Positions 2,758 through 5,556 of a stretch of DNA of 5,652 nucleotides are shown one piece after another. The number at the start of each line of letters is the position of its first letter. The stretch's first letter is position 1. The DNA is from Syntrophorhabdus sp. (lineage in GTDB: Bacteria > Desulfobacterota > BSN033 > UBA1163), in assembly GCA_020724025.1 (NCBI GenBank), contig DYHU01000167.1, forward strand, positions 2,463 to 8,114, read 5' to 3'. Made by a program: the position numbers and the translations under genes. The notes under the pieces were generated by a model that was not told the DNA's origin, ran no database searches, and saw nothing but the letters and a program-made list of their open reading frames with translations.

Positions 2758-2764
2758 AAGGAGG
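2758..2764 (+). promoter_or_regulatory. Strong ribosome binding site of the OsmC-like gene
   Basis: AAGGAGG lies 5 bases before the ATG at 2770 and is a near-perfect Shine-Dalgarno. It fixes the start of the upstream half of the split frame. No comparable site precedes the ATG codons at 2965 and 2968 just after the TGA, which argues that the second half is reached by readthrough rather than by independent initiation. Confidence 0.85.
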
Positions 2765-2769
2765 GGAGC

Positions 2770-3240
2770 ATGGGAGAGATTGTTCACACATCAAGAATCA
2801 AAATCGTAAGGGAAAAAGGTCCGACAAGAAGAGCCATGATAGAGGGATTTAATGAGCCGATCTATTACGGTGTCCACGGAGGGATTAAACGATTCTATAA
2901 AGTCGAGCCAGAAAAAGAACACGCAGCTACCCTCGATCATATTGTCGCTGCCACGGCAGCTTGAATGATGGGAACTCTGGCCAGGTTCCTGGCCGAAAGA
3001 CAGATCCCCACTCCAGAAGACCGTTATCGGGCAGAAGTTGAAGGGGATATCGAAAACGTCAACAACGTTCTGAAAATCACGCAGATTCGCGTCAGGTATT
3101 ATTTGAGAGTGGTTCAGGGAAAGGCTCAAGAGGCGAGAGATGCCTTTTCCTCTTACCTGACCTCCTGCCCTGCAGCTCAGAGCGTGATCGGCTGTATCAA
3201 TATCAAGGATGATCTCATGATCGAGGAGATGGCCGCATAG
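2770..3240 (+). CDS. OsmC/Ohr-family protein, probable selenoprotein with in-frame UGA (Sec65)
   Basis: OsmC/Ohr proteins are small cytoplasmic peroxidases that use a reactive Cys plus a second Cys to reduce organic hydroperoxides. Here two halves of 64 and 91 residues are in one frame, split only by TGA at 2962-2964. Joined, they give 156 residues, close to the usual 135-155. The residues before the TGA (ATLDHIVAATAA) and after it (MMGTLARFLAERQI) match the family's core helix, in which the catalytic Cys sits exactly at the TGA. The second conserved Cys is C133 in YLTSCPAAQS, 68 residues later (66 in E. coli OsmC, C59/C125). D56, nine residues before Sec65, stands where one branch of the family has an acidic residue. 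A hairpin fitting a bacterial SECIS follows the TGA. The strong RBS precedes only the first half and the real stop is TAG at 3238-3240. OsmC-like selenoproteins have been reported from marine metagenomes. The alternative is a nonsense-mutated pseudogene, made less likely by the exact position and the hairpin. The substrate is unknown. Confidence 0.85.
2962..2964 (+). other. In-frame UGA read as selenocysteine (predicted recoding site)
   Basis: This TGA is codon 65 of the OsmC-like frame and replaces the peroxidatic Cys codon. The next bases are ATGATG, so automatic gene callers would split the gene here into two proteins or drop one half. Decoding needs SelA, SelB, SelC and SelD, none of which is in the window. 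Confidence 0.8.
2965..2999 (+). promoter_or_regulatory. Candidate bacterial SECIS element inside the OsmC-like gene
   Basis: GGCCAGG (2979-2985) is the exact reverse complement of CCTGGCC (2988-2994), with TT between. In RNA this gives a 5-6 bp GC-rich stem topped by GGUUCC or GUUC. The apical GG (2984-2985) begins after 19 bases counted from the UGA, within the roughly 16-37 base range described for bacterial SECIS elements and almost the same as E. coli fdhF, whose loop is GGUC at 18 bases. A weaker lower stem can form between CUCU (2975-2978) and GAAAG (2995-2999) with a mismatch or bulge. I see no certain equivalent of the bulged U of fdhF; U2978 is a candidate. The hairpin is also coding (LARFLAE). 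Confidence 0.75.
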
Positions 3241-3321: not shown

Positions 3322-3789
3322 ATGGGGAAAATTATTGTTATTTATCACAGCCAGCAGTATGGGAATACTAAAATGCTTGCAGAAGCACTTGCGGAGGGGG
3401 CTCGGGAAGCTGGGGCTGAAGTTAACCTTATTAATACAAACGAGCGGCGGGTAACCCTAGAAGAATTTTTGGCCGCCGATGCAATTGCGATAGGCACCCC
3501 TGATTATTTCTCATATGTCGCGGGCACGATCAAGACCTTCTTCGATGATATCTACCTGTGGGATCAATCAGGCAAGCCTGTCAAAGGAAAACCGGCTGTG
3601 CTCTTCTTTTCCTGTGGTGGTGGCGGGAAAGTGAGGCAGCCTTTCGAATCCCTTGCTCAGCGCTTCTTCCAGCAGTTGGGGGAGACGGTAGGAAGTGAAC
3701 GTCCCATTAGCAACGAAGCAAAGAAGAAGTGCATCGCGCTAGGTAAGGAACTTGTGAAAAACCTAAGTAATAGGACTTCAAAAAAATAA
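3322..3789 (+). CDS. Flavodoxin family protein (FMN-binding, WrbA/flavodoxin-like)
   Basis: A 155-residue single-domain protein of flavodoxin fold. Seen: a beta strand KIIVIYHS running into the phosphate-binding loop S10-QQYGNTK (a variant of the usual S/T-x-T-GNT), which holds the FMN phosphate; AIAIGTPDYFSYVAGTIKTFFDD (55-76), matching the second FMN loop and following helix of WrbA-like flavodoxins; and VLFFSCGGGGK (93-103), the glycine-rich third strand and loop. There is no signal peptide, so it is cytosolic. Flavodoxin-like proteins carry electrons or reduce quinones via FMN; which applies here cannot be read from sequence. It follows the putative OsmC-like selenoprotein in the same direction, suggesting a shared redox role, which is inference. 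C98 in the third loop and C137 are the only cysteines. The stop is TAA, so no Sec is implied here. Confidence 0.88.
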   Translation: MGKIIVIYHSQQYGNTKMLAEALAEGAREAGAEVNLINTNERRVTLEEFLAADAIAIGTPDYFSYVAGTIKTFFDDIYLWDQSGKPVKGKPAVLFFSCGGGGKVRQPFESLAQRFFQQLGETVGSERPISNEAKKKCIALGKELVKNLSNRTSKK

Positions 3790-3822: not shown

Positions 3823-3832
3823 GAAAAGTGGT

Positions 3833-3853
3833 GTCATCCATAAAAAAGTTGGC
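3833..3853 (+). repeat. 21-base direct repeat, right copy
   Basis: This is identical to 2699-2719. It is followed by CGTATCAAATGCGGATTGCGG, a shortened relative of the sequence after the left copy (both contain ATGCGGATT and CGGAGT). Confidence 0.8.
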
Positions 3854-3894
3854 CGTATCAAATGCGGATTGCGGAGTTAATAAAAAAAACCAAT

Positions 3895-4395: not shown

Positions 4396-5556
4396 ATGGA
4401 TGGAAATAAATTTTCCTATGAATGGATCGAGACTCTTCCACGCCTGGGAGGGGTTGCCCGGGTTCTGGGTCAGGCCAAAATCATCGGGGTTGACCTAGAA
4501 GCGGACTCTTTATACCACTACTTCGAAAAGGTATGCCTCATACAGATCGCTACGGAATCCACCTCTTATGTAATGGATCCTTTGGCGCTAAAGGATCTTT
4601 CCGCTTTACACCCCGTTTTCTCCAATCCCCGCATCCGCAAAGTATTCCACGGGGCGGATTATGATATCCGTTCCCTGTACCGGGACTTTCGGCTCGAGGT
4701 CGAGAACCTCTTCGATACACAGTTGGCCTGTAAATTTCTGGGCCTCCGGGAGAGCGGCCTGGAAGCGTTGCTGCGAAGTCGGTTCCATGTGGAGCTGAAT
4801 AAGAAATATCAGCGGGCCGATTGGTCCCAAAGACCCCTTTTCCCGAAGATGCTGGAATACGCAGCGATGGACGTCATGTACCTGATTCCCCTGGCCCGTA
4901 TGCTGGAAAAGGAACTGGAAGAGAAGAGCCGATTATCCTGGGTGGAGGAAGAATGCCTATTTCTGAGTAAGGTCCGATTCACGCCCCCCAGCCATGCCCC
5001 GCTTTACCTAAAAGTGAAAGGGGCTTTTCTCCTGGATCCCCGGAGTCTTGCGGTTCTGGAGGCTTTGCTGGAATTCCGAGAGGCCCAGGCCCAAAAGTCG
5101 GATCTTCCCCCCTTCAAGTTGCTCCCCAACGGACCCCTCCTGGAATTGGCTATGAAAAAACCTTTGCGCCTGGAAGAATTGGAAACGGGGAAAGTCCTGA
5201 GCCGGAAGCAAATCGACAGATATGGGACACGCCTGCTGCAGGAAATTCACCGAGCCATGGCCATTCCCGATGAAGATCTTCCGGTGTACCCCCGGGAAGC
5301 AAGGCCGGATTTGTCTTCCCCCTTACGCAAAAGGGTCAAAGCACTAAAAACCTGGCGGGATGTGCGGGCAAAAAATTTAGGGATGGAGCCTGGAATCCTT
5401 TTGAATAACGCCCTGATCAATGGTTTCGCTTTGAAAAATCCCCGGTCGATAGAAGAGATGGAAGAGATTCCGGGCTTGAAAAAATGGCTGCAAGATCATT
5501 TCGGCCGGGAGATTCTGGCTGCTCAAACAAAGGGGCACAAAGGGGATGGGAAATGA
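4396..5556 (+). CDS. rnd: Ribonuclease D (DEDDy 3'-5' exoribonuclease with HRDC domains)
   Basis: RNase D trims the 3' ends of tRNA precursors and other small RNAs in the cytoplasm using two metal ions. At 386 residues it is close to E. coli RNase D (375). The DEDDy exonuclease motifs are all present: Exo I GVDLEADSLY with D33 and E35; Exo II VFHGADYDIRSL with D90; NLFDTQLA (104-111); and Exo III Y155AAMD159, which carries the Tyr that defines the DEDDy type. SDW-like ADWSQRPL (141-148) is also typical. A first HRDC domain lies at about 214-290 and a second, more diverged one at about 310-375, as in the classical two-HRDC architecture. The start is ATG 4396: an in-frame TGA at 4366-4368 limits extension. 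GAGG directly abuts the ATG, while AAAGG at 4377-4381 is 14 bases away, so the ribosome site is not ideal. The gene stands alone after the terminator and ends in TGA. No defect is seen. Confidence 0.95.
   Translation: MDGNKFSYEWIETLPRLGGVARVLGQAKIIGVDLEADSLYHYFEKVCLIQIATESTSYVMDPLALKDLSALHPVFSNPRIRKVFHGADYDIRSLYRDFRLEVENLFDTQLACKFLGLRESGLEALLRSRFHVELNKKYQRADWSQRPLFPKMLEYAAMDVMYLIPLARMLEKELEEKSRLSWVEEECLFLSKVRFTPPSHAPLYLKVKGAFLLDPRSLAVLEALLEFREAQAQKSDLPPFKLLPNGPLLELAMKKPLRLEELETGKVLSRKQIDRYGTRLLQEIHRAMAIPDEDLPVYPREARPDLSSPLRKRVKALKTWRDVRAKNLGMEPGILLNNALINGFALKNPRSIEEMEEIPGLKKWLQDHFGREILAAQTKGHKGDGK

What the first reader, a model, noticed from the sequence alone, without database searches (positions are those of the whole stretch)
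2770..3240. OsmC/Ohr-family protein with selenocysteine (UGA) at the peroxidatic cysteine position
Seen: two in-frame ORFs are separated by a single TGA; together they make a full-length OsmC-like protein, and the TGA sits exactly where the family has its catalytic Cys, with the partner Cys (C133) 68 residues later. Only the first half has a Shine-Dalgarno. Known: replacing a redox-active Cys by Sec is the usual pattern of bacterial selenoproteins, and OsmC-like selenoproteins were reported in marine metagenome surveys. Inference: this is an active selenoperoxidase or related redox enzyme that standard annotation would split into two hypothetical proteins.
Basis: partly seen in the sequence, partly recalled or inferred. 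Interest (0 to 1): 0.9.

Follow-up and report, generated by a model that had tools for sequence, protein, structure and literature searches.

The report
OsmC-like selenoprotein, unlisted subfamily
An apparent stop codon in this bacterial gene almost certainly codes for the rare selenium amino acid selenocysteine, giving a small redox enzyme of the OsmC family from a branch that the protein databases searched here mostly hold as two broken halves.

Summary
Window 2770-3240 (+) is one 156-codon gene with an in-frame TGA at codon 65 (2962-2964), the column of the peroxidatic Cys of OsmC/Ohr; the resolving column is Cys133. All 63 full-length relatives from one genome scan have TGA at that codon. 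Both sides of the TGA are under purifying selection. Synonymous change collapses in the hairpin region after it (pS 0.19 against 0.78). In Acidobacteriota-type relatives the hairpin shows compensatory change. selA, selB and selD are found in 47, 42 and 42 of 49 relatives' genomes. Cys forms exist at exactly this column.

OsmC-like selenoproteins are known, but this is not the published family (motif UxxT, NCBIfam NF041052): our protein scores 17.7 bits against a cut-off of 95. The 2026 inventory lists only UxxT; here it is UxxG. In samples of four phyla, 137 of 138 matches contain TGA, and Cys looks derived (at least five changes on the tree). Of 222 listed homologues, 192 are under 130 aa. 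Peroxidase activity is plausible but unproven: the Ohr catalytic Glu column appears to hold Leu. The window's own genome is not held.

The parts
2770..3240 (+). OsmC-like selenoprotein gene, 156 codons read through the UGA
   Evidence: Pfam OsmC above cut-off only when joined; 63 of 63 full-length relatives colinear with TGA at codon 65; purifying selection on both sides of the UGA
2758..2764 (+). Shine-Dalgarno AAGGAGG, 5 nt before the ATG
   Evidence: read directly; SD-like 4-mer before the first ORF in 60 of 64 sequences
2962..2964 (+). UGA codon 65, inferred selenocysteine at the peroxidatic column
   Evidence: conserved in 63 of 63 genome relatives; aligned with the peroxidatic Cys of OsmC/Ohr; Cys in 13 of 30 long database homologues
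2977..2996 (+). SECIS-like hairpin, 12 nt between it and the UGA (in the window its outermost pair, 2977 with 2996, is not formed)
   Evidence: synonymous constraint peak at codons 69-76; 93.4% of cells paired on 28 of 57 Desulfobacterota-type sequences; window fold -16.2 kcal/mol, z -1.93 (50 nt) or -1.32 (51 nt)
3166..3168 (+). Cys133 codon, resolving-Cys column
   Evidence: Cys in 64 of 64 sequences; aligned with the resolving Cys of OsmC/Ohr
3322..3789 (+). flavodoxin / FMN-reductase-like gene, 81 bases downstream, same strand; possible electron-transfer partner
   Evidence: Pfam FMN_red and Flavodoxin_1; adjacency is not generally conserved

Best explanation
The gene makes a full-length OsmC-fold selenoprotein. 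SelB with Sec-tRNA reads UGA 65 as selenocysteine, guided by a hairpin just downstream (inferred from relatives). The selenolate at position 65, in the long central helix, attacks an oxidised substrate, most likely an organic hydroperoxide or a related oxidised or sulfur species. Cys133 then resolves the oxidised Sec as a selenenylsulfide, which a dithiol or a flavodoxin- or thioredoxin-type reductant reduces. Shown: the conserved UGA, its column, selection on both sides, the constrained hairpin, Cys homologues, and Sec machinery in relatives. Inferred: insertion in this organism and the chemistry. Guessed: the substrate. The protein belongs to an OsmC selenoprotein subfamily distinct from the published UxxT/NF041052 one.
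For: TGA at codon 65 in 63 of 63 full-length genome relatives. In scans of samples of four phyla, 137 of 138 matches contain TGA; the one without is a fragment (model positions 86-152) that does not reach column 65. Window against L002: codons 2-64 dS 1.16, dN 0.014; codons 79-148 dS 0.69, dN 0.074. Mean pS over 1596 pairs: 0.781 before, 0.187 in codons 69-76, 0.783 after. Hairpin in the Acidobacteriota-type set: 96.2% of cells paired, 13 double-changed cells, 0 of 500 shuffles (31 sequences); with 7 Methylomirabilota rows added, 92.1% and 17 cells, again 0 of 500. Column 65 in 30 database homologues of 130 aa or more is only Cys (13) or Trp (17); Trp is what UGA gives under code 4 (five rows missed by the pattern read by eye). 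selA 47 of 49, selB 42 of 49 and 12 of 14, selD 42 of 49, selD itself mostly with an in-frame TGA. tRNA-Sec at 59 bits or more in 35 of 49; ARAGORN gives tRNA-Sec with anticodon UCA in the three loci tested. U65 and C133 align with the two redox Cys of OsmC/Ohr. Fold: mean pLDDT 88.4; OsmC/Ohr chains head both PDB comparisons.
Against: The window's own genome is not held, so its Sec machinery is untested. Some host MAGs lack parts: G034 has no hit for selA, selB or selD; G044 none for selA and selB. The tRNA-Sec model is leaky: over cut-off in 5 of 14 control genomes. In the Desulfobacterota-type set the hairpin has almost no covariation (1 double-changed cell, which 168 of 500 shuffles reach) and folding z-scores run from +0.08 to -2.05. 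In the Acidobacteriota-type set two of five measures do not exceed the shuffles (pairs with a change on both sides 179 of 500, pair types 499 of 500), and single-sequence folds often prefer other structures. Rfam gives no hit in the window. Peroxidase chemistry is not supported by the subfamily models, and the Ohr Glu column appears to be Leu55, invariant in 64 of 64. No conserved operon points to a substrate.
Confidence: 0.88

Rival explanations
1. Pseudogene or sequencing error: the TGA is a nonsense mutation or assembly error in an OsmC gene that has Cys or Trp there.
For: Database homologues with Cys (13) or Trp (17) at this column exist.
Against: 63 of 63 genome relatives share the TGA; dN/dS is far below 1 on both sides; the codons after it are under extra synonymous constraint.
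Confidence: 0.01
2. Two separate small proteins made from adjacent ORFs (TGAATG), perhaps reassembling as a split OsmC.
For: In 57 of 64 sequences an ATG follows the TGA directly, and databases hold the C half as a protein.
Against: SD-like 4-mer before the second ORF in only 2 of 64; the codon after the TGA is CTG or CTC in 7 of 64; the break lies inside helix 55-76 of the model; Cys homologues are single chains.
Confidence: 0.02
3. UGA is read as tryptophan (genetic code 4 or 25) throughout the genome.
For: 17 of 30 long database homologues carry Trp at this column.
Against: TGA ends the RNase D-like gene of the window and seems to end several of the OsmC genes of relatives; no full-length genome relative has TGG there; Cys, not Trp, is the alternative in OsmC/Ohr; hosts have Sec genes. 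The Trp proteins are best read as gene callers using code 4 on short contigs (inference; their DNA was not seen).
Confidence: 0.01
4. A selenoprotein, but not a peroxidase: a selenol-disulfide oxidoreductase, or an enzyme acting on persulfides, sulfite or other oxidised sulfur or selenium species.
For: The Ohr catalytic Glu column appears to be Leu in 64 of 64 (column); Ohr/OsmC subfamily models are not met; many hosts are, by record title, lineages usually taken as anaerobic (inference), where organic hydroperoxide may not be the main substrate.
Against: Both redox positions of Ohr/OsmC are kept; in one clade the next gene is rubrerythrin (5 of 24 downstream genes scanned), an oxidative-stress protein (recalled).
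Confidence: 0.4

Closest known systems
OsmC-like selenoprotein of marine surveys (Sargasso Sea 2005, GOS 2008), motif UxxT; taken here as the same as NCBIfam NF041052 OsmC_like_Se, whose two members found here have the motif ULLT
   Same: OsmC superfamily; Sec in the corresponding region; Cys homologues known
   Different: Motif U-x-x-G here (UMMG, UMTG, ULTG, ULLG); 17.7 bits against cut-off 95; hhalign of the family with an NF041052 member gives probability 0.2 on a scale of 100, though its short weak match pairs the two Sec columns. Two of 48 genomes, those of L058 and L060, encode both kinds.
Ohr and OsmC organic hydroperoxide reductases (TIGR03561, TIGR03562)
   Same: Fold; peroxidatic and resolving Cys columns (Sec65, Cys133)
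   Different: OsmC model 16.8 against cut-off 85.8; the catalytic Glu column appears to be Leu; in most structural alignments the first 37-52 residues of the monomer model are not aligned
Jann_2040 OsmC-like protein, PDB 3cje
   Different: 7% sequence identity; its function is not known to me

Membership tests
Bacterial selenoprotein | In-frame UGA conserved at one position in orthologues | tested here: met
   63 of 63 full-length genome relatives
Bacterial selenoprotein | Cys homologues at the Sec position | tested here: met
   13 of 30 long database homologues; the other 17 have Trp, taken as UGA read by code 4
Bacterial selenoprotein | SECIS hairpin directly downstream of the UGA | tested here: met
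   Constraint, pairing, compensatory change in the Acidobacteriota-type set; SelB binding not tested
Bacterial selenoprotein | selA, selB, selC, selD in the same genome | tested here: inconclusive
   Present in most relatives' genomes searched; the window's genome is not held
Bacterial selenoprotein | Selenium in the product | not testable with these tools
   Needs 75Se labelling or mass spectrometry
OsmC superfamily (PF02566) | Pfam gathering score | tested here: met
   37.1 against 27.5 bits
NF041052 OsmC_like_Se | Curated cut-off of 95 bits | tested here: not met
   17.7 bits; P0122, a member found with that model, scores 178.7
Published UxxT OsmC-like selenoprotein family | Sec motif UxxT | tested here: not met
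   Gly at Sec+3 in 64 of 64
Ohr/OsmC peroxidases | Subfamily model cut-offs TIGR03561 and TIGR03562 | tested here: not met
   TIGR03562 16.8 against 85.8; TIGR03561 not listed for this protein at E up to 0.1
Ohr/OsmC peroxidases | Peroxidatic and resolving Cys columns | tested here: met
   Sec65 and Cys133 aligned
Ohr/OsmC peroxidases | Catalytic Arg and Glu (Arg19, Glu51 of X. fastidiosa Ohr) | tested here: inconclusive
   By offset the Glu column is Leu55, with invariant Asp56 next to it; no equivalent of Arg19 could be assigned
Ohr/OsmC peroxidases | Hydroperoxide reduction | not testable with these tools
   Needs an enzyme assay

The most novel reading that the evidence does not exclude
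This is an ancestrally and almost exclusively selenocysteine-based branch of the OsmC superfamily, found in at least Desulfobacterota, Acidobacteriota, Methylomirabilota and Nitrospirota, with a substrate other than that of Ohr. Cys forms arose from Sec at least five times, the reverse of the usual picture in which Sec replaces Cys. The recoding hairpin sits about 7 nt further downstream in the Acidobacteriota-type genes than in the Desulfobacterota-type ones, within one homologous coding stretch. The gene is missed because annotation cuts it in two.
Probability: 0.4. Interest if true: 0.6.

Novelty: new variant of a known kind. Interest (0 to 1): 0.47.

Why it matters
It adds an OsmC selenoprotein subfamily that the inventory and models checked here do not list. 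With its sister groups it is common in some phyla (58 of 95 Methylomirabilota-phylum genomes at E 1e-20), and the listed protein records mostly hold it in halves. It gives a testable case of repeated Sec-to-Cys change, and of a recoding hairpin that differs in place between relatives. A curated family model for it would repair many records. It also asks why these lineages keep selenium in an OsmC enzyme whose Ohr-type catalytic Glu seems not to be kept.

Tried and rejected
Rejected: nonsense mutation, two-protein and code-4 readings (see rivals). Rejected: membership of the published UxxT family.

Led nowhere: conserved gene neighbourhood. No cluster of neighbours (blastp E 1e-8, half the query covered) occurs in more than 5 of the 64 contexts. 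Rfam scan of the window: nothing at E up to 1. tblastn against plasmids: nothing. phmmer of the single sequence against the PDB: two hits at E 0.5-0.7, unrelated by name. RNAalifold on a mixed 28-sequence alignment: no structure, probably because the hairpin lies at different places in the two groups; on the Desulfobacterota-type set it gives only 4 pairs. A third placement of the stem, columns 15-20 with 27-32, suggested by the Methylomirabilota rows, does not exceed shuffles on the 38 sequences (69.3% paired). Promoter and terminator scan: not above shuffles.

Selections that I made: 28 of 57 Desulfobacterota-type sequences went into the count; the 31 were picked after the shifted stem had been seen, and 7 Methylomirabilota rows (L151, L153, L154, L156-L159) that looked different were left out there but are; 24 of 25 downstream and 20 of 23 upstream neighbours found were scanned; six Trp-type proteins were left out of the tree; searches scored at most 9 candidates per genome. 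The NF041052 scan used 48 genomes.

Papers: PMC1088965, PMC2398784, PMC9312934 and PMC5962072, passages only; PMC13188914, passages plus all three parts of section 7. That this subfamily is not in print rests on these, on the searches (listings), and on NCBIfam; subscription papers and bioRxiv are not covered and supplements were not read, so an unsearched report may exist.

Full report
What is there. Window 2770-3240 (+) holds two in-frame ORFs separated by one TGA at 2962-2964. Joined, they give a 156-residue protein that passes the Pfam OsmC cut-off (37.1 bits against 27.5); the first half alone matches nothing and the second half alone stays below it at 24.2. The start has AAGGAGG 5 nt upstream.

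Relatives. One scan of genome contigs gave 64 loci. In 63 the gene is complete and every one has TGA at codon 65; L064 has only two short N-terminal fragments. One peptide pattern of that scan had Cys at the site (AATAACMM) and the other five do not touch it, so the scan was not tilted against Cys forms. Scans of samples of four phyla with a family profile gave 36 matches in 35 of 395 genomes (phylum of G002, whose record title says Deltaproteobacteria), 33 in 32 of 396 (phylum of G055, Acidobacteria), 66 in 58 of 95 (phylum of G061, Candidatus Methylomirabilota) and 3 in 3 of 198 (phylum of G032, Nitrospiraceae). Of these 138, 137 contain TGA (one, in G908, also a TAG); the other, in G529, is a fragment beyond the site. 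The place of the TGA was checked only for loci that were fetched. Matches near 110-180 bits are sister groups rather than close orthologues. Thresholds were 1e-25 and 1e-20 in the others, so remoter Cys forms would not have been listed.

Selection. Between the window and L002, codons 2-64 have dS 1.16 and dN 0.014; codons 79-148 have dS 0.69 and dN 0.074. So the stretch after the TGA is constrained as protein. Over all 1596 pairs of the 57 Desulfobacterota-type sequences, mean pS is 0.781 before, 0.187 in codons 69-76 and 0.783 after. Codons 69-76 are also where synonymous conservation peaks, up to 3.9 times expectation against a mean of 1.15 outside codons 66-78. Codon 138 is also high, at 3.4, and is not explained.

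Hairpin. In 28 of the 57 Desulfobacterota-type sequences the stem of columns 16-22 with 29-35 pairs in 93.4% of cells, but covariation is weak, because the sequence hardly varies. In the Acidobacteriota-type set (31 sequences, including one each from the Methylomirabilota and Nitrospirota scans) a stem 7 columns further downstream, 23-28 with 34-39, pairs in 96.2% of cells with 13 double-changed cells; none of 500 shuffles reaches either value or the covariation score, while two other measures (pairs with a change on both sides, pair types) do not exceed the shuffles; slid versions pair in 65.1% or less. An earlier count on 7 sequences agreed (12 of 500). Adding seven Methylomirabilota rows that I had left out gives 92.1% and 17 double-changed cells, again 0 of 500. 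This is the strongest sign of an RNA element. The set was chosen after the stem had been seen, and relatedness can inflate the shuffle control, as the tool warns.

Sec machinery. In 49 genomes of relatives selA is found in 47, selB in 42 and selD in 42; selB in 12 of 14 further genomes, one of which is that of L064. Most selD hits carry an in-frame TGA themselves. tRNA-Sec scores 59 bits or more in 35 of 49; the cut-off itself (38 of 49) is leaky, since 5 of 14 control genomes pass it. The three top loci were confirmed by ARAGORN as tRNA-Sec with anticodon UCA. By title nearly all are MAGs, and gaps are expected. G034 has no hit for selA, selB or selD, and G044 none for selA and selB. The nearest hosts: G002 has selA, selB and tRNA-Sec at 82.9 bits but no selD hit; G001 has selA, selB and selD but its best tRNA match is only 47 bits.

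Column identity. A profile of 23 family members aligns column 65 with the peroxidatic Cys of 1ukk, 1nye, 1qwi and 6d9n, and Cys133 with their resolving Cys, at weak E-values of 0.0038 to 0.075; a luciferase scores in the same range at 0.049. Across 30 database homologues of 130 aa or more the column is Cys in 13 and Trp in 17 (five rows missed by the pattern were read by eye: P0015 Trp; P0128, P0129, P0130 and P0137 Cys). Trp is UGA read with code 4 (inference); for example P0016 closely matches L113, which has TGA (by eye). In a tree of 113 sequences rooted on L147-L149, Sec is the root state and five changes to Cys are the minimum. Support for the nesting varies: P0006-P0011 with L004 and L009, UFBoot 100; P0004 among Sec forms, 90 to 99; P0018, 98; P0019, 87; the P0128 group, 68 and 92. 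The outgroup is itself Sec, so the root state is conditional on it. Six Trp-type rows were left out of that tree.

Neighbours. A flavodoxin/FMN-reductase-like gene follows 81 bases downstream in the window. In 5 of 24 scanned downstream neighbours the next gene is rubrerythrin, in one clade (L044, L045, L048, L049, L051). Upstream, 5 of 20 are sodium:sulfate symporters, in the same loci. No context is general.

Known or new. OsmC-like selenoproteins were reported from the Sargasso Sea (3 sequences, motif UxxT; PMC1088965) and GOS (5 selenoproteins in 3 samples, 161 Cys homologues, UxxT; PMC2398784), and are listed in reviews (PMC9312934; PMC13188914). NCBIfam has NF041052 for OsmC-related selenoproteins. 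Our protein scores 17.7 against 95; the two NF041052 members above cut-off in 48 host genomes have the motif ULLT, so I take NF041052 and the published family as one. The published sequences themselves could not be fetched. The 2026 inventory of 119 families counts different motifs as different subfamilies and has one OsmC row, UxxT. On that rule this is a separate subfamily (UxxG), not listed there. Hence: new variant of a known kind.

Noticed in passing
2696-2744 and 3830-3878: A 49-nt direct repeat (84% identical) flanks the OsmC-flavodoxin gene pair; it may be an intergenic mobile remnant or a duplicated leader.
   Followed up: partly
2-1669, 1685-2347, 4396-5556: Neighbouring genes: type I restriction R-subunit-like fragment, RadC-like protein (JAB domain), RNase D-like protein with HRDC domain (RNase D is my name for the 3'-5' exonuclease plus HRDC).
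   Followed up: no
L064 3967-4047 and a second site; L099: A genome of the family of G002 (G063) shows only short N-terminal fragments of this gene, which suggests loss by decay there.
   Followed up: no
codon 138, window 3181-3183: Synonymous conservation at this Ser codon is 3.4 times expectation, far from the hairpin.
   Followed up: no
L136-L149: Sister groups of OsmC-like genes (such as UMLGTF, ULTGTF, UMLGTLNG), also with TGA at the site; the two tested score 15.6 and 28.7 bits against the NF041052 cut-off of 95.
   Followed up: partly
P0019: One Cys form has Ser at the resolving position (SPAARS), so it lacks the resolving Cys.
   Followed up: no
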